64,000 nt of DNA from Rhodospirillaceae bacterium (GCA_002709075.1 PAPV01000019.1:1-64000); one strand, 5' to 3'; positions 2-10,407 are shown, counted from the first letter of the stretch. Made by a program: numbers and translations. The notes: generated by a model not told the origin, from the sequence alone.

Positions 2-889
2 ATAGCGTGGTTGATTGGATTTTCTACTTTTATTTTTGGAAATGAGGAATGGGCTGTAAGACTTTTTTCACCCATAACACACTTATTTATTTCTTTAGTT
101 TTATGGGGAACCGCAAAATTTGCATTTGGATCAAACTCTGGAAAAATTGCAGCTTTAATTTGGATATTTACACCCGCAGCATCCTTGGGTGGATTTATAA
201 TTTCAACTGATACTCCACTATTATTATTTTGGTCTTTATCTTTATTTTTTTTATTCATATCATTAAGACAAAATTCTAGCTTTTCATCTTTATTTGTAGG
301 TATTTTTCTAGGTCTTGCATTTTTATCCAAATATGCAGCTTTGTATTTTTTAATTTTCTTCATTATATGGTGGATAATTTACGACCGAAGTACATTTTTA
401 AGTATTAAAAATATAATAATAATACTTTTTACAAGTTTCTTGATAGCAAGCACAAATTTATATTGGAATTACTTAAATGATTTTGTAACGGTAAGTCACA
501 CAATTTCAAATGCAGATCTTTCAGCAATAACTCTCAACTATAAAAATGTGATTGATTTTTTGTCTTCTCAATTTTTAGTGTTTGGGCCTTTATTATTTTT
601 ATTATATCTTTTAATAATAATAGATAGCTTATTTAAGAACAGAGATATAACTCTTTTATCAATGATTTCTTTTCCTATAATTATTTTAATTACAGTTCAA
701 AGTTTTTTAAAAATTGCAAATGCTAACTGGGCAGTTACTGCTTACGTAGGCGCGACTTTAATCATAAGTTACTACGCAACCTTGACAAGAAATTGCGAAT
801 GTTTTTTTATAGTTAATGATCTTTCTTGCATAACAGACGACCGAACTTTGATATGCGGTTCGGTCGTCTACTTACCGTTGCGTTGTTAA
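2..889 (+). pseudogene. Glycosyltransferase family 39 (ArnT/PMT-like) membrane protein; 5' end off window, 3' end truncated
   Basis: Frame open to window edge; 'NEEWAVRLFSPITHLF', 'STDTPLLLFWSLSLFF', 'ANWAVTAYVGATLIISYY' are GT39-like; homology-like sequence ends near nt ~775 and is followed by an unrelated short tail; very AT-rich. Confidence 0.6.
836..868. repeat. Perfect inverted repeat GACGACCGAAC-(11 nt)-GTTCGGTCGTC
   Basis: Read directly; lies between convergent ORFs 11..889(+) and 886..1260(-); no T-tract. Confidence 0.8.
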
Positions 890-1260
890 AGTCTTTTTCC
901 AAAGTTTTTTAAAGGCTGATAATCTTTTAGTTGGCAAACGTTATCTCCTCCAACCGGTCTCCACCCCATATCCTCAAGACCATCGTGATCAGGATGATCA
1001 AAGATTTTCCATTCCTTCAATTTGTCTAATAGGACTGCCGAACGGAAGCGCTCCAATTCGCGTACATGCAAGCCTTGATAATAATTGAAACTCCACCACT
1101 CATTGGCATGACGCTTAAAATAAATATGTTGTTTAGCTTTACATTCCGGCGGGCCCCAATATCGAATACCGGCAGGAAAAACCCGTTGTCTTGGGATTTT
1201 TCGTTTTGGCGGTCGTTTTTTTCTTGGTGGAAATTTTAAAATATCAGCGACCATATCCAT
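886..1260 (-). CDS. Hypothetical protein (124 aa, basic N-terminus)
   Basis: ORF with coherent composition, on the outer mobile element. Confidence 0.55.
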   Translation of the reverse strand: MDMVADILKFPPRKKRPPKRKIPRQRVFPAGIRYWGPPECKAKQHIYFKRHANEWWSFNYYQGLHVRELERFRSAVLLDKLKEWKIFDHPDHDGLEDMGWRPVGGDNVCQLKDYQPLKNFGKRL

Positions 1261-1323: not shown

Positions 1324-1397
1324 CGATTTTCATGCGAGGCATATTAGGTGCTCCTCTCTTTAGTGCTTTAGGCCCAATGCCACGGCGCACAAGCTGA

Positions 1398-1709
1398 AGT
1401 TCAAATGCCGAACCTGTTAAGGTAGGTCAGTCCAATAAAAAAGCCGCCACAGCCAAGCTGGGCGACCCCAACGCTTTAGCTGTATTTCTAAATCGCCCGC
1501 AAGCTGAATTCAAATCGGCGAATTTCTTTCCTAATATTTTACCGGATGAAATCAATATTATCAACAATATGTTTGCTGAAGGTAAAAAAATGAGTAGTCT
1601 TTTTTTAAGAATGATCACTGAAACTTGGATTGTAACCCATGGAAAAGTTCACAGTAACAGCCAAGTTAAAAACGCCAATCATATTTGGAGGCGGTTACTG
1701 TACGCTTGA
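1398..1709 (+). pseudogene. Open frame without start codon upstream of the RAMP gene; possible frameshifted gene beginning at ATG 1333
   Basis: Frame reads SSNAEPVKVGQSNKKAATAKLGDPNALAVFLNRPQAEFKSANFFPNILPDEINIINNMFAEGKKMSSLFLRMI...; ATG-initiated frame 1333..1425 (MRGILGAPLFSALGPMHGAQAEVQ...) is offset by -1 and overlaps it. Confidence 0.3.
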
Positions 1710-2136
1710 TGCGGTGCTCGGTTCCATCCTATTCGAGGAACTGGGAGACGTTGAGGCGGCCCATTCAGCAATCCCATTGCGCTGCACTGATGGGCTTTTT
1801 CACGCTAGTGCGGCGATCATGGAGCCGTTTTATTCCCGCCCGGTGACTTTCGTCGCGAACCTACGAGCAGATCATACTGTCAATCCAGCTCTGCTACAAA
1901 AGAATAAAGCGGGTAACGTTCACAGACGGATGGGGAAAAAAAGGAGGCAAGACTTCGGTGCTGTTTTGAATAAATATTCGTTATATAGTGCTGAAGATGT
2001 CGTGTGGTATGCGGAAGGTGATCGGGAACGCGCGCAAGAACTTCTGACCCCAATAGCTTTTATTGGTAAAAGACGGGGAAGCGGATTTGGAGAGGTAAAG
2101 ATTAAAAAAATAGCCACAGTCACACCCGTACCTTAA
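1639..2136 (+). CDS. RAMP-superfamily protein, Csf3/Cas5/Cas6-like (orphan)
   Basis: N-terminal 'FTVTAKLKTPIIFGGGYCTLDAVLGSILFEE', 'IPLRCTDGLFHASAAI' and a C-terminal glycine-rich loop 'FIGKRRGSGFGEV' as in RAMP proteins; no other cas genes in the window. Confidence 0.55.
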   Translation: MEKFTVTAKLKTPIIFGGGYCTLDAVLGSILFEELGDVEAAHSAIPLRCTDGLFHASAAIMEPFYSRPVTFVANLRADHTVNPALLQKNKAGNVHRRMGKKRRQDFGAVLNKYSLYSAEDVVWYAEGDRERAQELLTPIAFIGKRRGSGFGEVKIKKIATVTPVP

Positions 2137-2185: not shown

Positions 2186-3991
2186 TCACACAATTGGCCC
2201 CAGAAGGTAACCGTTTTTATCTTTAATTATGTGTTTGTTTTCGACACCGCGGCTTAAAGCCATTTTAACAGCGGAGTCTGTGACAGGGCTGAGGTCGTTC
2301 TCTTTTGAGTATTCTACCACGCAATTAATGATTTCTTTTTGCGATAAAGGCGCTCGATCTCGAAGGATCGCTTTGATACGCTCACCTGCCGGCACTTTTT
2401 GATTGGCCGGGACGGGCACCAATTCGCCCTCAATCTCGCCTGTCAGTTCGTGGGTAACTTCTGTATTTTGAAGTTGAAACTCTAAACTCAAGCTGTCATC
2501 ACCATCTTTCTGTTTTTCCACCGAGACTGTGACAAATCGACTTTCACCTTGTCGCTTTACAAGAAGCATTGTGTCCACGTTTGCTTTAAGTGCAGATGCA
2601 CCTCGAGCACCCCGCGATTGGTCTTTACCAGTATGGGCTACGATCAGCACAAAACACTGCCAAAGGGTCGATAAGTTGTAGGCAATCTCGATGGCAGCTG
2701 CCATCTCGCTATTACTATTTTCATCAATCCCCGGGGTGGCTTTAGATAATGTATCGATAATGACAAGCTCAAACCGCTCTGCGTTAGTTTCCAGCCATTC
2801 GATGTCACTTAAATTTGCGAGAGTGATGCCTTCCCATAACCCAACACCAGTTTGATCTAAATCATAGTAATTTGCTGTAGCAACAAGCCTCCGCCCCATT
2901 CCGCGTCGTCCTTCATGAGCGGTATAAAGTGAACGCCCGAGCTTGGATGAGACACCAGGGTAAAATTCAGCCCCATTGGCGATACACAAAGCGAGGTAGC
3001 CACAGATATAGGATTTAAATGACCCACTGGCTCCACTGATAATCCCAACTCCCACTTCGGGAATGAGGTCTTTGACAAGCCAACTAATTGGCTCAGCAAG
3101 GTACACCTCACGGGGCGTTTCTATAGGACGCCTCTTTGTGTCTCGCTCTTTGGCCTTTTTGGCAAATTTTTGAAGAGCGCTGTCGATCAGATTAGCGAGC
3201 TCTTTATCCGTTTGTTCAATAGTGTAGCCCGATTGGCGAAAGGGCCTGAATAAATGCATCATTTCGCCTTGGGTTAACCCGAGGTTGGCGTAGGATGCCG
3301 CGAGGTCTCGGAGGGGATTATGCCAAGCCTCTCCGCGGATCAGTTGCTCGAGGCGAATTTCATTTTTTGTTAATGGAAGTCCTGAATGCTGTGGTTGATT
3401 GATTGGGAGATCTTCTGAGGAACGACTTGGCAGTGCGCCAGCGCGAGATTGCATAATCCGTTCCCCTTGTTGCAAAAACTCTGTAAGCGCCTGCTCTGAG
3501 ACCAAGGGTAATTGATCGGCGGAAAAATCCAGGAGTTCATCATTGGGCCATTCGTACTCTGATCCCGTCTCAGGATGGATACCGTAGGCAATAAATTGTT
3601 GCCCCTCTCCAAGAATCTCGATGGCACATTCCTGCCCCTCAATGAAGAAGGTGTTACTCTGCCTTTTTTTTAATGCGGAAGGAGCGCGAAACACATACAA
3701 AAATTTTGGCGTTGCCCCAATTCTTTTAGGAGCGGGTCCAAGAAGATCAATCAGGAGCCTTTCAATCTCGGCTGAGGTCGCGGGGTCTCGGACATCAATA
3801 TCGATAGCAATAATGTTTTGAGCTCCGCCACAGAGAACGCCCGTATTCGCTTTAGAAAATTTATCAAAATTTTTTGCCTCATTGGGACGGGTATTCCAAG
3901 CACGAAGGGTAGGGCGTTTTCCGTTCGTTGGCGTGACATCAAAACCTTTTTCAACCAGCAGGGGGGCTTTTTCTTTGTAACTGTTAGACAT
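2186..3991 (-). CDS. Bifunctional primase/polymerase (prim-pol) + RepA-like AAA_25 helicase replication protein
   Basis: N-terminal 'NTGVLCGGAQNIIAIDIDVRDP' prim-pol-like; Walker A 'GIISGASGSFKSY'; 'ELVIIDTLSKATPGIDENSN'; 'VLIVAHTGKDQSRGARGASALKANVDTMLLV'. Confidence 0.85.
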   Translation of the reverse strand: MSNSYKEKAPLLVEKGFDVTPTNGKRPTLRAWNTRPNEAKNFDKFSKANTGVLCGGAQNIIAIDIDVRDPATSAEIERLLIDLLGPAPKRIGATPKFLYVFRAPSALKKRQSNTFFIEGQECAIEILGEGQQFIAYGIHPETGSEYEWPNDELLDFSADQLPLVSEQALTEFLQQGERIMQSRAGALPSRSSEDLPINQPQHSGLPLTKNEIRLEQLIRGEAWHNPLRDLAASYANLGLTQGEMMHLFRPFRQSGYTIEQTDKELANLIDSALQKFAKKAKERDTKRRPIETPREVYLAEPISWLVKDLIPEVGVGIISGASGSFKSYICGYLALCIANGAEFYPGVSSKLGRSLYTAHEGRRGMGRRLVATANYYDLDQTGVGLWEGITLANLSDIEWLETNAERFELVIIDTLSKATPGIDENSNSEMAAAIEIAYNLSTLWQCFVLIVAHTGKDQSRGARGASALKANVDTMLLVKRQGESRFVTVSVEKQKDGDDSLSLEFQLQNTEVTHELTGEIEGELVPVPANQKVPAGERIKAILRDRAPLSQKEIINCVVEYSKENDLSPVTDSAVKMALSRGVENKHIIKDKNGYLLGPIV

Positions 3992-3995
3992 TATG

Positions 3996-4304
3996 CTACT
4001 CTCCCGTCTGCCCGGAGATTACCGGCATATAGAAGTACCCAGTCTTTAAATGTGAAGGGGGGGCTGACAGAAAGGCCAGGGCCTCAACGAAAAGGTCCTC
4101 TCTGTTGAACAGCCCAAACTCTGCAACTGCGACGGCCAAGGCTTGTTTATTGGAAGTAATGAAACGCATTGCCTTGACTTTTGGCATCGGCGAAAGCGTA
4201 ACTTTCTGACACAAAACCCATTGCAGCTCATCAGCTCCAATGAACCAATCAGGGGTGATGTCGAGTTGAAAGTTTAAGAGTGATGCTGATATAAATGACT
4301 TCAT
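3996..4304 (-). CDS. Hypothetical protein
   Basis: 102-aa ORF immediately upstream of the replication gene, same strand. Confidence 0.5.
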   Translation of the reverse strand: MKSFISASLLNFQLDITPDWFIGADELQWVLCQKVTLSPMPKVKAMRFITSNKQALAVAVAEFGLFNREDLFVEALAFLSAPPSHLKTGYFYMPVISGQTGE

Positions 4305-4943: not shown

Positions 4944-5227
4944 TCAGCGAAGTTTTTTAGCAAGATCTTCTGCTCTAAGATGTGTGTAGCGTTGTAACAT
5001 TCTGAGATCTTTGTGACCTGTAATAGAGGCTACCTCCATCACATTAAGTCCTTTTTCAAAGAACCTTGATGTTGCCTCGTGTCTTAGGTCATGAAAGTGA
5101 AGATCTTCTATTTGTTGTTTTTGAATTAATCTTTTCCAGCAGCTCTGTAATGCGGCTGGTTTTATGGGGAAGACAAAGCCAGAGATGTCTCTTGGCAGGG
5201 TGTTGAGTATTTCTAATGCTTTAGGAG
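4944..5227 (-). pseudogene. Outer-element tyrosine integrase, C-terminal half (interrupted gene)
   Basis: Minus-strand reading PKALEILNTLPRDISGFVFPIKPAALQSCWKRLIQKQQIEDLHFHDLRHEATSRFFEKGLNVMEVASITGHKDLRMLQRYTHLRAEDLAKKLR*; catalytic HxxR and Y motifs; absent from the ORF track because it lacks a start. Confidence 0.9.
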
Positions 5228-5245
5228 GGCAGCGCTCTATCCAGC
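5224..5245 (-). other. Partial tRNA-Arg(CCG) sequence (D-loop to anticodon), left attachment junction
   Basis: Minus strand GCTGGATAGAGCGCTGCCCTCC. Confidence 0.8.
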
Positions 5246-5310
5246 AATATATTGAAAACGCTTAGTTTTTCACAGATTGTTCTATCTGAATTAGTATATC
5301 TGAATAGTCT

Positions 5311-5331
5311 ACTGTGTCAAATCTGTGTCAA
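5311..5331 (+). repeat. 21-bp direct repeat ACTGTGTCAAATCTGTGTCAA, copy 1
   Basis: Identical to 9384..9404; itself contains TGTGTCAA twice. Confidence 0.9.
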
Positions 5332-5341
5332 TTATTGGTTT

Positions 5342-6574
5342 CTATTTTTTCACTGAGTTAAGAAAATGAAGTAAAGAGGTTGCAACTGCGTGACCAAGAT
5401 TAACCGGAACAGCGTTGCCTATCTGTTTATATTGACTTGAGAGACTACCCTCAAAATCCCAAGTGTCAGGAAAGGTTTGAATACGCGCATATTCTCTCAC
5501 GGTTAGAGGTCTTGTTTCGGTTGGATGGCAACGTTCCGTTTGCTTTTGTGCAGGTGCGCATGTGAGTGTAAGACTTGGTTCATCCCAAGATAAACGTCTT
5601 GCCATCCCTGTCTTTCCTCCGCCCAAATGATAACTGCCTTTCATGTATTCGCTCTGAAGTTTGTCGGGTAAATCTCTCCAATACCCGCCTTCTGGCACTT
5701 GTTGCATTATATTTGCCTTACTTTTGGGGTAATTTTGTCCTCCAGATATTGGAACGTCAGAATTATATAACTCGCCAGATTTCAAAGCGTCATTAAGAGT
5801 AAAAATTTTTGGATATTTTTTGGGCCAAAAAAATTCCTCTTCAGTTGCTAAATCCTTTTTTACAGCAACTAAAAATAGTCGTTCTCTTTTTTGCGGAACC
5901 CTGTAAAAAATTGCTTTGAGAATTTTGGGTTCAATAAGTTTATACCCAAGTTCATCTATAATATTTTTAATTGTTTGAAGCGTTCGCCCAGAGTCATGCG
6001 CCGATAATCCACGAACATTTTCTGCAAGAATTACTCTTGGTTGAATTTGCTTGATTGCTCGAGCAAATTCAAAAAATAGTGTCCCCCTTATATCTTCAAA
6101 CCCTAGTTTTTTACCGGCATATGAGAATGCTTGGCAGGGAAACCCACCCGAAAGCAAATCGACTTTCCCTGAGAAATCCCCAAAATCTATATTCCTGATA
6201 TCATCATTAATGACGTTCCAGTTTGGTCTATTTTTTCGAAGGGTTAAACATGCATCTTTATCAATTTCGTTATGGAGTAGTGTCTGAAAACCTGCCATTT
6301 CTAACCCAAGTGCTAACCCTCCAGCGCCAGCAAAAAGTTCCAGTGCAGTGTGGGTTTTCGTGCATTGTTCGATATTTTCTAGATATCCAAGTTTTGTCTC
6401 TCTAAAAAATTCTAACTCTGGAAATCGTCCATATAGTTCATCCAACTCAAAGTATTCAAGTCCTGTAATCTTATCTATTTTTGGGTTTAACAAACCCTTT
6501 TTGACCCTTTGCTCTATGTTTCTTTTTGACACGCCAAGGATGTCTGCAAGTATCTGTTTTGAGAGTGATGTCAT
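5342..6574 (-). CDS. DNA (cytosine-5) methyltransferase with N-terminal HTH-like domain
   Basis: 'ALELFAGAGGLALGLEMAGF', 'GGFPCQAFSYAGKK', 'AENVRG', 'QKRERLFLV', 'QIGNAVPVNLG'; N-terminus 'SKQILADILGVSKRNIEQRVKKGLL'. Confidence 0.95.
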   Translation of the reverse strand: MTSLSKQILADILGVSKRNIEQRVKKGLLNPKIDKITGLEYFELDELYGRFPELEFFRETKLGYLENIEQCTKTHTALELFAGAGGLALGLEMAGFQTLLHNEIDKDACLTLRKNRPNWNVINDDIRNIDFGDFSGKVDLLSGGFPCQAFSYAGKKLGFEDIRGTLFFEFARAIKQIQPRVILAENVRGLSAHDSGRTLQTIKNIIDELGYKLIEPKILKAIFYRVPQKRERLFLVAVKKDLATEEEFFWPKKYPKIFTLNDALKSGELYNSDVPISGGQNYPKSKANIMQQVPEGGYWRDLPDKLQSEYMKGSYHLGGGKTGMARRLSWDEPSLTLTCAPAQKQTERCHPTETRPLTVREYARIQTFPDTWDFEGSLSSQYKQIGNAVPVNLGHAVATSLLHFLNSVKK

Positions 6575-6576
6575 GA

Positions 6577-6589
6577 CAGAAATTTTCTG
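6577..6589. promoter_or_regulatory. Candidate operator CAGAAA-T-TTTCTG in the divergent methyltransferase/endonuclease promoter region
   Basis: 13-nt palindrome directly upstream of the methyltransferase start, between divergent R and M genes. Confidence 0.4.
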
Positions 6590-6651
6590 AAAATAATTTT
6601 GCTGTGTTTTCTTGCCATGCTAACATTCTTATCGGGGTAGAGGAAATACAT

Positions 6652-7386
6652 ATGGAAAATAACGATAGAATTCTTAACCTAGCAGGCAAATGGTTTGTTA
6701 AAACGGTAGTTGCCAGTCATATAAAAAATACAAAAAAATTAATTAGTTATAAAGAATTTAATGTTAATCCTTTTCTAACTCCGTATTTGTCTGTGTTTCT
6801 AAAAGGCGAGTTATCAGAAAGAGGTGTCGCTGAGGCGCTTGTCTTGCCGAGGGCGCTTCAGACTTCTATCGCAACATCATTCGGAACACATATGCAGCAC
6901 TTTATTTCTGAGGTTCTATCAGATGCTTATCCAAGTGTTGTCTCGGGTCTTGATATTGAGTTTGACGACCAATTGGATGGGCGAAAAAAATATTCTCAGG
7001 TAAAGTCAGGCCCTAACACAATTAACGCAGATGATGTTGAAACTATCCATAACCATTTCAACTCCATCAGACAACTTGCCAAGACTAATCGTTTATCCAT
7101 TCAATTAAATGACCTTGTGGTTGGTGTTATTTATGGCAATGAGAGAGAATTGAGTCCGCATTACAAAATACTTCGGGACAAATATAACTATACGGTAGAG
7201 GTGGGAAAGGATTTTTGGGTCAGGGTTACTGGAGATGAACTATTCTTTGAAAAACTAATAGGTGTAATTGTTGAAGAAACAAAATCTCTGGATGTTGAAA
7301 ATATACTTGAGGAAGTGATCGAGGGCCTATCAAAAACCCCCGAAATCAAGTTACTTGTTAACAATCTTAAAATTTCAAAAATCTAA
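6652..7386 (+). CDS. Type II restriction endonuclease, EcoO109I/PmeII-like
   Basis: 'NVNPFLTPYLSVFL', 'GLDIEFDDQLDGRKKYSQVKSGPNTIN', 'DLVVGVIYGNERELSPHYKILRD', 'VGKDFWVRVTGD'; divergent from the methyltransferase; start 6652 preferred over 6604. Confidence 0.75.
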   Translation: MENNDRILNLAGKWFVKTVVASHIKNTKKLISYKEFNVNPFLTPYLSVFLKGELSERGVAEALVLPRALQTSIATSFGTHMQHFISEVLSDAYPSVVSGLDIEFDDQLDGRKKYSQVKSGPNTINADDVETIHNHFNSIRQLAKTNRLSIQLNDLVVGVIYGNERELSPHYKILRDKYNYTVEVGKDFWVRVTGDELFFEKLIGVIVEETKSLDVENILEEVIEGLSKTPEIKLLVNNLKISKI

Positions 7387-7566
7387 TTCTTATAAATAAT
7401 TCCATATCAGTTTCAGTGAGCATGCAAACCCATTGAGAAACAGTAACTCTGGTTCGGAACTTGGTTAGGCATCAAATTTAGATTATGACGCACCAAAGTT
7501 GGATATGGGTGCATAAAGATTTCCAATAGGACAAGGGAGAAATAACCCTTAAGTGATACAGGTAAT

Positions 7567-7827
7567 CATCCAGTCGGTTCTGTTTCACTGCCGTAGTTTT
7601 AGTAGAGTGTAAAGGGATATCGGATTACCCACCCTGCCTATTCGATTAGGTTACTCTGACTGGATGTGTTGACGGACGCAGACGCAGATTTGTTTTCTAG
7701 ACATGCTTTCCCTGTGGAGGGGTTAGTGTGTCTAGAACGCACCGCAGATTAAATATTCTAAAGATTGTTAATTTACATCTAGAGACCATGCATCTTCGGT
7801 GCATTCATCCACCAACGGTGGATGAAT
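7567..7827. ncRNA. Candidate structured non-coding region with several inverted repeats
   Basis: CATCCAGTC(7567-7575)/GACTGGATG(7658-7666); TTCTAGACA(7695-7703)/TGTCTAGAA(7729-7737); ATGCA(7788-7792)/TGCAT(7800-7804); ATTCATCCACC(7803-7813)/GGTGGATGAAT(7817-7827). Confidence 0.4.
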
Positions 7828-8217
7828 TGGTTAACTAAATTTCACCTAAATAGTTCTATGAAAGACATGGTAGAACTAACAAGACTTTTTCTAAATGAGA
7901 CACCAGACAGTGACGATTTAGAACTCTTGAATGAATTCATCGGACTGAGAACTGGTGCAATCGTGATGGGATTAGGAAAAGTTAAACAATATGCAACAAG
8001 ACTAGACCAAGAGATTAATTCACTCAGAGCAGACTTATCAGACCTCAGAAAATCTTCACCAGAAGATGGCCCTCGGAAACTTGCTGATGCATTAGAAACG
8101 ATGGGGAAAATTTTCTGGTTACAAAGAAAGATGGGAATGTATACCGCACTAACTGCTGCCGCGACTGGTGTGGGTGTAGAGAAAACAAATAAGTTACTCA
8201 AGAAACGCGGGAAGTAG
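7822..8217 (+). CDS. Hypothetical protein (annotated start lies inside a perfect hairpin; internal ATG 7858 possible)
   Basis: 131-aa ORF with hydrophilic helical composition. Confidence 0.55.
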   Translation: MNWLTKFHLNSSMKDMVELTRLFLNETPDSDDLELLNEFIGLRTGAIVMGLGKVKQYATRLDQEINSLRADLSDLRKSSPEDGPRKLADALETMGKIFWLQRKMGMYTALTAAATGVGVEKTNKLLKKRGK

Positions 8218-8379
8218 AGGTGCGACTCCTTCATTTGCGGAAAAGAAAACGGAAGATGCATTTTAATAGCGTTCCTTTGTGTTCTAAATCAGGTATCTAT
8301 GGTTTCGTAAAATATTGTTTTCCCTGAATCAAAACTGGGACACCCAGGCAATCTATAAATGCATTTAAGACACCTCTAT

Positions 8380-9369
8380 TCATAGAGAAAAGGCAGCATA
8401 TTTTTTGAATACATTTTCTGGATTGAGGTGGGTGTATCTGAACAACTGTCTTACATCTTTATGTCCAGATATGAGTGCCACTTCTGGCACTGACATTCCC
8501 ATCTCAAAGAACCTTGAGACTGCTTCATGTCTTAAGTCATGAAATCGTAAATCGGTAATACCTGCTTTTTTGCGTGCTCTGTTCCATGCAAGACGGAGAC
8601 AAGTGGCAGAGATAGGAAAGACTCTCTCATCGGTTTGAGGCCCTCTCTGAAGAATTGCTGTGCACCTTCTAGTTAGGGGCACTCGTCTATCTTCCTCATT
8701 CTTCGTGTCAAAAAGAGATGCAAAACCATTATCTAAGTCAACATCACACCATCTGAGTTTCAGCATCTCAGAACGACGCATACCAGTTTCAATTGCAAAC
8801 TCAATTATGGAACAGATATAGATATTGCGTTGAGATGATGCGGCAACGAGGAGGCGTTCTTTTTCGTCACCGATAAGACGCCTCGTTCTCGCTTTAGAAC
8901 CCTTTGGAAACTGAATATCTTTGATTGGGTTGTAGGGTATCCCATATCCCCATTTCTTAATTGCGGTATCCAGAACTCTTTTTATGAGTGCGAGTTCTGA
9001 ACCAACACTCCCACCTTTCACAACTTTTAACCTGTCATCACGATATTGGATGAAGTGTTGTTTGGTTAGATAGCGAATATCTAACTCACCAATCCATCTC
9101 TTAGCGATGGATTTCAATCGACAGGTTTCAGGCCCACAACCTTTGTGATTAGGAGAAATTTCTTCTGCATATTTGAGAAGGAGTTCTTTCAGCGTAACTT
9201 TGGTTTCAATGATTAAATCTGGAACAGGGGCAGATTTGAGTTTGTGTTCAAGTTCATTGACCCAAACAACAGCATCAGACTTCTTAGAGAATGATTTGGT
9301 GAAACTTCTCCATCCAGCAATCCTCACCTGAGCATTCCAAGACTTACCTCTTTTACGCACACAACCCAT
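8380..9369 (-). CDS. Tyrosine recombinase/integrase of the inner element
   Basis: 'ETGMRRSEMLKLRW', 'LRFHDLRHEAVSRFFEMGMSVPEVALISGHKDVRQLFRYTHL'. Confidence 0.95.
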   Translation of the reverse strand: MGCVRKRGKSWNAQVRIAGWRSFTKSFSKKSDAVVWVNELEHKLKSAPVPDLIIETKVTLKELLLKYAEEISPNHKGCGPETCRLKSIAKRWIGELDIRYLTKQHFIQYRDDRLKVVKGGSVGSELALIKRVLDTAIKKWGYGIPYNPIKDIQFPKGSKARTRRLIGDEKERLLVAASSQRNIYICSIIEFAIETGMRRSEMLKLRWCDVDLDNGFASLFDTKNEEDRRVPLTRRCTAILQRGPQTDERVFPISATCLRLAWNRARKKAGITDLRFHDLRHEAVSRFFEMGMSVPEVALISGHKDVRQLFRYTHLNPENVFKKYAAFSL

Positions 9370-9383
9370 TGATTTGACCTTTC

Positions 9384-9404
9384 ACTGTGTCAAATCTGTG
9401 TCAA
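9384..9404 (+). repeat. 21-bp direct repeat ACTGTGTCAAATCTGTGTCAA, copy 2
   Basis: Identical to 5311..5331. Confidence 0.9.
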
Positions 9405-9473
9405 AACTGAAGTTTTTTGATAACAGACTGAAATCAAAAAAATCGTAAATATATGAATATATTAAAAGATTTA

Positions 9474-9518
9474 TGGCGCACTCGAGAGGATTCGAACCTC
9501 TGACCTCTGCCTTCGGAG
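9474..9518 (-). other. Partial tRNA-Arg(CCG), anticodon to CCA end, right attachment junction
   Basis: Minus strand CTCCGAAGGCAGAGGTCAGAGGTTCGAATCCTCTCGAGTGCGCCA. Confidence 0.9.
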
Positions 9519-10215
9519 AAAGAGGCACATTTCTTGTGGCTCCATTCTTAGTCTCCGGCAAATGAACATATTTCTTCTCCAGAAACACATACTGCCATTG
9601 GAGTTTTAGCAGCTCCCCTCTTCTCATGGCGGTCTCAATGGCAAACAGCATGAGAGGTTTGGTCCATATATTTGTTATTTGGTTCAGACCATGAAGGAGT
9701 TTTTCTTCTTCGCCTTCCTCTAACCTTCTATTTCTAGAACTACTAGGAGGTGGCTTTCTGATCTTAGACACAGGATTACAGGTTAGCTCATAACCCCAAT
9801 CTTGCATCGCTACGGTAAAGATATGAGACAACAACGTCAGCTCACGCAGAACGGTAGAAGGTTGAACCAGTTCCAATCGGTTATCGCGATACTGAGCAAT
9901 ATGAGATTGTGTAATGTTGTGAATGGGAAGTTCAGATAGGAATGATTGCTTCAAACCTTTTAATCTAAATTTTTCTATCTCGTGTGACTTTTTATCTACC
10001 GAGACGGTTTTCTCGTAGCGATTGATAATATCCAGAAATAGATATGAAGATTGGGGTATTAATCCATTTTCTAAATCGATCTCTGTCTGTCTAGACCATC
10101 TCAGCGCATCTTCTCTTCTGCCGAAGCTTTTACAGAGTGTTCTTGAGCCCTTCCGTCTGACCCTTACGTAGTAGCGACCTAGCTTCTTTGTAATACTCGC
10201 CATAATCTTTTTCAC
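9519..10215 (-). pseudogene. Outer-element tyrosine integrase, N-terminal half (interrupted gene)
   Basis: Reads ...ETAMRRGELLKLQWQYVFLEKKYVHLPETKNGATRNVPLSP, then enters tRNA-Arg sequence; 697 nt + 284 nt (4944..5227) = 981 nt, a multiple of 3. Confidence 0.9.
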
Positions 10216-10330: not shown

Positions 10331-10407
10331 TGGTCGGAGTGAGAGGATTTGAACCTCCGGCCCCTGCCTCCCGAAGACAGTGCTCTACCAGGCTGAGCTA
10401 CACTCCG
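10331..10407 (-). tRNA. tRNA-Pro(CGG)
   Basis: Minus strand CGGAGTGTAGCTCAGCCTGGTAGAGCACTGTCTTCGGGAGGCAGGGGCCGGAGGTTCAAATCCTCTCACTCCGACCA; anticodon loop TTCGGGA. Confidence 0.95.

What the first reader, a model, noticed from the sequence alone, without database searches (positions are those of the whole stretch)
4944..10215. One mobile element inserted inside the integrase gene of another, with exact junctions readable
The 10215->9519 ORF ends '...TRNVPLSP' and runs into tRNA-Arg sequence. The missing remainder ('PKALEILNTLPRDISG...HDLRHEATSRFFEKG...GHKDLRMLQRYTHL...') is 4.3 kb away at 5227->4944 on the same strand. Removing 5228-9518 joins ...CTTTCTCC|TAAAGCA... in frame: 697+284 = 981 nt = 326 aa + stop. 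The outer element's integrase was therefore inactivated by the inner element. This is element-on-element parasitism that also immobilises the host element.
Basis: seen in the sequence. Interest (0 to 1): 0.82.

Follow-up and report, generated by a model that had tools for sequence, protein, structure and literature searches.

The report
Mobile island splitting another's integrase gene
A 4.3-kb mobile DNA island that normally lives in an arginine-tRNA gene has landed inside, and cut in two, the integrase gene of a second mobile element; it looks like a one-off landing at a second-choice site, but the island belongs to a family that carries a conserved large RNA of unknown function.

Summary
Removing 5228-9518 rejoins a 326-aa tyrosine integrase in frame, and a sister species of the same genus carries that gene uninterrupted (89% aa identity, DNA continuous across the join). 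The remaining outer ORF lacks three of four catalytic motifs checked. The insert is a complete tRNA-Arg island: integrase, a 21-bp repeat near each end, a type II restriction-modification pair, a structured RNA, a small ORF and both halves of a tRNA-Arg(CCG) attachment site. Of 18 integrase relatives, 12 sit directly beside an intact tRNA-Arg. The host assembly has no detectable tRNA-Arg(CCG). The target CTCCTAAAGCA matches the anticodon-loop core CTCCGAAGGCA at 9/11. This fits integrase-driven integration at a secondary site rather than an anti-integrase strategy: no other such split was found among 385 alphaproteobacterial genomes. Nested elements are known; I found no described case inside an integrase gene, but the search was short. 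'Immobilised' is conditional, since the insert looks able to excise. More novel is the RNA: Rfam's orphan Methylobacterium-1 RNA lies near such integrases in 26 of 34 loci, and covarying structure runs well past the Rfam model.

The parts
9519..10215 (-). 5' part of the outer tyrosine integrase gene (232 of 326 aa; likely ATG at 10203)
   Evidence: Pfam PF00589 3.5e-10; 89% aa to intact G001 gene over the joined protein
4944..5227 (-). 3' part of the outer integrase gene, with HxxR, GH and the catalytic Tyr
   Evidence: in-frame join; 89.6% nt to G001
5228..9518 (.). inner element, 4291 bp, inserted with 4-bp shared CTCC (5224-5227 / 9515-9518)
5228..5245 (-). P-side att half: tRNA-Arg(CCG) segment GCTGGATAGAGCGCTGCC
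   Evidence: sequence; a similar stretch starts the distal att of L050, L057, L059, L060
9475..9518 (-). P'-side att half: anticodon loop to 3' end of tRNA-Arg(CCG), 44/44 identical to the tRNA gene in L046
5311..5331 (+). 21-bp repeat ACTGTGTCAAATCTGTGTCAA, putative arm-type integrase or excisionase site, distal end
   Evidence: exact repeat; similar motif at the distal ends of L050, L057, L059, L060
9384..9404 (+). second exact copy of the 21-bp repeat, integrase-proximal end
   Evidence: motif present in the tRNA-int interval of nearly all relatives
8380..9369 (-). inner tyrosine integrase, 329 aa, catalytic motifs intact
   Evidence: PF00589 2.8e-27; motifs; relatives
5342..6574 (-). C5-cytosine DNA methyltransferase
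   Evidence: PF00145 3.5e-85; 65% to L060
6652..7386 (+). EcoO109I-type type II restriction endonuclease
   Evidence: PF14511 1.1e-27; 49% to L060
7495..7598 (+). Methylobacterium-1 RNA (RF01712); conservation extends to about 7455-7745
   Evidence: 94.1 bits, gathering 40; extended alignment and covariation
7861..8217 (+). 118-aa protein of unknown function; homologues near the RNA in several islands
10331..10407 (-). tRNA-Pro(CGG) next to the outer integrase start, presumed integrase-proximal end of the outer element
   Evidence: ARAGORN; a copy with an altered 5' acceptor end on contig C20
4437..4880 (-). outer-element ORF, 147 aa; a 147-aa ORF sits at the same place in G001
   Evidence: position and length; homology not scored
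3996..4304 (-). outer-element ORF, 102 aa, related to the 156-aa ORF of G001
   Evidence: nt match 79% over 3885-4283
2186..3991 (-). outer-element primase-polymerase + AAA ATPase
   Evidence: PF09250 9e-14, PF13481 6e-28

Best explanation
A small tRNA-Arg-specific integrative island integrated, by its own tyrosine integrase, into a secondary attachment site that happens to lie in the integrase gene of a second, tRNA-Pro-associated element. The excised island would carry an attP made of tRNA-Arg(CCG) from about position 15 to the 3' end, with crossover at the anticodon loop (CTCCGAA). The host assembly lacks tRNA-Arg(CCG), the target of the closest relative; the site used, CTCCTAA|AGCA in the codons for ...LSPKA..., shares the first four loop bases and 9 of 11 bases from the loop onward. 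Integration split the outer gene without loss of a base and left one att half at each junction. Shown: junctions, empty site in a sister species, att halves, repeats, intact inner integrase motifs, tRNA-Arg context of relatives. Inferred: that the inner integrase did it, that lack of the primary site favoured it, that the outer element is immobile while the insert stays, and that excision would restore it.
For: In-frame join and empty site. Complete att anatomy: two tRNA halves and identical 21-bp repeats. Of 18 relatives of the inner integrase, 12 have an intact tRNA-Arg directly upstream and L053 a tRNA-Arg repeat there. In L050, L057, L059 and L060 the distal repeat covers tRNA positions 12-19 to 73-77, with the repeat motif just inside it. 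Own genome: no tRNA-Arg(CCG) within 3 mismatches of two patterns; only ACG, TCG and CCT arginine tRNAs found. Core-to-site similarity 9/11, reached at 1.25e-4 of window positions. The joined outer gene is still constrained against G001 (dN 0.060, dS 0.705, no stop), so the insertion is probably recent relative to that split.
Against: Identity on the 5' side of the loop is poor (2 of 8), and over 25 nt the site matches at only 12/25, less than the host's tRNA-Pro at 19/25, so similarity alone does not explain the choice of site. Absence of tRNA-Arg(CCG) rests on a 26-contig assembly (99.89% complete); other tRNAs also escaped the family search, so a gap is possible. No excision product or reads were seen.
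Confidence: 0.85

Rival explanations
1. Dedicated anti-competitor strategy: the inner island evolved to target and silence integrases of rival elements.
For: The site lies in a conserved integrase motif (R-x-V-P-L-S) and removes catalytic residues of a competitor; the island's own integrase gene has no CTCCTAAAGC at that place.
Against: The DNA site is not conserved: among some 45 relatives only the window and G001 genes carry CTCCTAAAGC. Relatives use tRNA-Arg. No second case among 385 genomes.
Confidence: 0.05
2. Reversible switch ('active lysogeny'-like): the inner island excises under some condition, restores the outer integrase and so controls outer mobility.
For: Precise, in-frame, scarless join; inner integrase motifs and both att halves intact; helper-embedded satellites do this with helper late genes (PMC10111431).
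Against: Only one instance; no excisionase recognised; nothing ties excision to an outer-element signal; the mismatched core (G/T) may lower efficiency.
Confidence: 0.1
3. Assembly artefact or chimera joining unrelated sequences.
For: Draft genome in 26 contigs; no reads seen.
Against: Both junctions agree with one precise event and an empty site in another genome; the tRNA segment has no other copy here to cause a false join; GC content shows no step at either junction.
Confidence: 0.03

Closest known systems
Helper-embedded PICIs (HE-PICI; PMC10111431)
   Same: Small integrase-bearing element precisely nested in, and interrupting, a gene of a larger integrated element.
   Different: HE-PICIs target 14 recurring sites in prophage late genes with a dedicated integrase clade; here the integrase relatives use tRNA-Arg, the interrupted gene is an integrase, and the case is single.
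IMEs integrated in conserved ICE genes of Firmicutes (reviewed in PMC5704250)
   Same: Element-in-element insertion that disrupts a gene of the host element.
   Different: There the ICE genes are regular sites (Maff2-related and SNF2 helicase genes among them); no relaxase was recognised in this island.
tDNA genomic islands of the Islander type, anticodon-loop class (PMC4383910)
   Same: Tyrosine integrase next to the att, crossover at the anticodon loop, tRNA 3' half carried by the element.
   Different: Here neither junction rebuilds a tRNA, because the target is a protein gene.
Secondary-site integration of Salmonella genomic island 1 (PMC2297512)
   Same: A site-specific island found at a secondary chromosomal attachment site.
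   Different: The secondary site here lies inside another mobile element's integrase gene; SGI1's normal site is trmE (PMC8409611), not a tRNA gene.

Membership tests
tRNA-targeting integrative island, anticodon-loop class | Tyrosine integrase gene at the att-proximal end | tested here: met
   8380-9369 minus, PF00589 2.8e-27, 105 nt from the att half
tRNA-targeting integrative island, anticodon-loop class | Element carries the 3' half of a tRNA gene from the anticodon loop on | tested here: met
   9475-9518, 44/44 to tRNA-Arg(CCG) of L046
tRNA-targeting integrative island, anticodon-loop class | Integrated at, and rebuilding, a tRNA gene | tested here: not met
   Both flanks are the outer integrase gene; met in relatives. 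So this copy is related to that class by descent but does not itself sit in a tRNA gene.
Helper-embedded PICI | Nested precisely in a gene of a helper prophage, at a recurrent site | tested here: not met
   Interrupted gene is an integrase; no recurrence among 385 genomes
Helper-embedded PICI | AlpA, replication and late-gene zones | tested here: not met
   4.3 kb with RM pair, RNA, one small ORF and integrase only
Integrative and mobilizable element | Relaxase and/or oriT | tested here: inconclusive
   No relaxase among the main ORFs; oriT not searched
Methylobacterium-1 RNA (RF01712) | Match above the family gathering score | tested here: met
   94.1 bits against 40, full model
Type II restriction-modification system, EcoO109I-like | Linked endonuclease and C5 methyltransferase | tested here: met
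   PF14511 1.1e-27 and PF00145 3.5e-85, divergent genes; recognition site and activity not tested

The most novel reading that the evidence does not exclude
The orphan Methylobacterium-1 RNA is the 5' part of a structured RNA of about 300 nt that belongs to a family of tRNA-Arg-integrating islands in marine Alphaproteobacteria and serves the islands themselves (control of excision, copy number or exclusion, or defence), rather than a host function.
Probability: 0.5. Interest if true: 0.7.

Novelty: new variant of a known kind. Interest (0 to 1): 0.48.

Why it matters
The case gives base-exact evidence, with an empty site in a sister species, that a tRNA-specific island can integrate into a protein gene of another element and split its integrase, and it suggests what may happen when the usual tRNA target is missing. 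Following the island up links a structured RNA unexplained since 2010 to mobile islands: 26 of 34 detected copies lie within about 6 kb of a tyrosine integrase, most beside tRNA-Arg. That moves the question of its function from the host to the mobile element and makes it testable.

Tried and rejected
L090 (integrase matching only to residue 246) was checked as a second split case: its C-terminal part differs by another rearrangement, not an insertion at this site. A second tRNA-Pro copy on C20 (100% over 76 nt, altered 5' acceptor end) was considered as the distal end of the outer element, and C20's last 171 nt match window 885-1055 at 97%; between them lie ordinary-looking chromosomal genes, so the outer element's extent stays unresolved. 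IMG/VR gave no close relative of the inner integrase; the phage and plasmid collections gave no match to the RNA; plasmid matches to the whole island, in the eight rows listed, cover only the methyltransferase. The endonuclease has no sequence relative in the PDB. Its homology to the L046 ORF is doubtful (16% identity) and that to L135 weak (19%). My first count of relatives beside tRNA-Arg was too high; a recount gives 12 of 18 with an intact tRNA-Arg directly upstream, L053 with a tRNA-Arg repeat, L063 a fragment about 0.5 kb from two tRNA-Arg genes, L049 and L056 cut by contig ends, and L052 and L062 without a recognisable tRNA.

Full report
OBSERVATION. The window is bases 1-64000 of contig C19 of a 2.52-Mb, 26-contig genome. 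Only the 4 bp CTCC, present at both junctions (5224-5227 and 9515-9518), leave the crossover point open. The strongest test, an uninterrupted homologue, is met: genome G001 of the same genus has the gene intact, 89% identical over residues 2-326, and its DNA runs straight through the join. DNA beyond the gene also matches the window's outer element (3885-4283, 79%). Between the joined gene and G001, dN is 0.060 and dS 0.705, with no stop in either half, so the insertion is probably recent compared with that split.

LOSS OF FUNCTION. The remaining ORF from 10215 ends in a chimeric tail at 9382 (277 aa). It keeps the first arginine motif but lacks HDLRH, GHKD and the RYTH tyrosine. By what is known of tyrosine recombinases it should be inactive. 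That the outer element is therefore immobile is an inference, and holds only while the insert stays.

INNER ELEMENT. It holds a C5 methyltransferase and an EcoO109I-type endonuclease, a Methylobacterium-1 RNA, a 118-aa ORF and a 329-aa tyrosine integrase with all four motifs checked. Its two ends together make a tRNA-Arg(CCG) segment: GCTGGATAGAGCGCTGCC at 5228-5245 and CTCCGAAGG...GTGCGCC at 9475-9518. The second is identical over 44 nt to the tRNA gene in L046, a Candidatus Puniceispirillum MAG, and 41/44 to that of G001, which hints at an earlier stay in another alphaproteobacterial order. An exact 21-bp repeat lies 65 nt inside the P half (5311-5331) and 70 nt inside the P' half (9384-9404); the motif is found at corresponding places in relatives and may be an arm-type site.

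RELATIVES. A scan of bacterial genomes found 18 alphaproteobacterial relatives (60-83% for the long matches; two partial ones at 84-88%), many of them SAR116. Twelve have an intact tRNA-Arg (CCG, ACG or TCG) directly upstream of the integrase, and L053 has a tRNA-Arg repeat there. L049 and L056 are cut by contig ends, L063 is a fragment near tRNA-Arg genes, and L052 and L062 show no tRNA. L050, L057, L059 and L060 show the distal tRNA repeat as well. L060 carries the same restriction-modification pair (65% and 49%) beside tRNA-Arg(ACG). So the normal home of the family is tRNA-Arg. In the present genome two pattern searches, each with up to 3 mismatches, found no tRNA-Arg(CCG), only ACG, TCG and CCT. 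The site used matches the core from the loop onward at 9/11, a level reached at 1.25e-4 of window positions and at 2 of the 1942 positions of the joined gene. Upstream of the loop the match is poor, so the site looks like a weak secondary one.

IS IT A STRATEGY? Among 385 alphaproteobacterial genomes, 63 of which gave an integrase match at E 1e-20 (at most five candidates scored per genome), no other gene was found split at this point, and the target DNA is not conserved among related integrases. I therefore read the case as a chance nested insertion. Nested elements that interrupt genes of their carriers are established: helper-embedded PICIs (PMC10111431) and IMEs in ICE genes (PMC5704250). 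My literature search was short, so 'first in an integrase gene' is not claimed.

THE RNA. RF01712 was listed in 2010 for Methylobacterium and marine samples, without a function in the text I could read (PMC2864571). Of 34 loci (two duplicates removed), 26 have a tyrosine integrase of the inner type or of a second, 420-aa type within about 6 kb; 20 have a tRNA-Arg gene in the stretch read. Of the eight without an integrase, five lie within about 600 nt of a contig end. I judge that a random 12-kb stretch would hold such an integrase a few per cent of the time; that figure is an estimate from counts per genome, not a run control. Some loci came in through the integrase search itself (L046, L059), and loci from related genomes are not independent. 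An alignment of 29 copies shows conservation from about 40 nt before to about 150 nt beyond the model. RNAalifold pairs, 23 with compensatory changes. For three helices outside the model, 98.3% of cells pair; the covariation score is 0.372 against 0.134 in shuffles (0 of 500 reach it) and at most 0.112 when partners are slid. The structure was predicted from these same sequences, which favours it. What the RNA does is unknown.

Noticed in passing
window 7455-7745; L046, L059, L134-L136, L170-L192: Methylobacterium-1 RNA (RF01712) is linked to tRNA-Arg islands (26 of 34 loci with a nearby tyrosine integrase) and its conserved, covarying structure runs well beyond the Rfam model.
   Followed up: partly
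window 1639-2136 (+): 165-aa protein matching type IV CRISPR Csf3/Cas5 (PADLOC E 2.1e-25) on the outer element; no other Cas protein was recognised among the eight proteins scanned. CRISPR arrays were not searched for specifically.
   Followed up: partly
window 1348-1531 (-): SAM-II-like (28.5 bits) and SAM-V-like (34.9 bits) riboswitch matches in tandem upstream of a 124-aa ORF (1260-886); both below the gathering score.
   Followed up: no
contig C20:124029-124199 and window 885-1055: 171 nt of the 124-aa ORF region recur at 97% at the end of contig C20, suggesting a second related element.
   Followed up: partly
contig C20:111544-111620 (L097 7345-7421) and L097 7576-7872: A second tRNA-Pro(CGG) copy, identical over 76 nt but with a different 5' acceptor end, near a weak Terminase_2 match (E 8e-4).
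   Followed up: partly
L098 13728-14892: The intact outer-type integrase of G001 sits beside tRNA-Arg(CCG), whereas the window copy, 89% identical, sits beside tRNA-Pro(CGG): closely related integrases next to different tRNAs.
   Followed up: partly
L053 2-934 and 7001-7981: Two integrases of this family in one locus, the second preceded by a tRNA-Arg fragment, as in a tandem array of islands.
   Followed up: no
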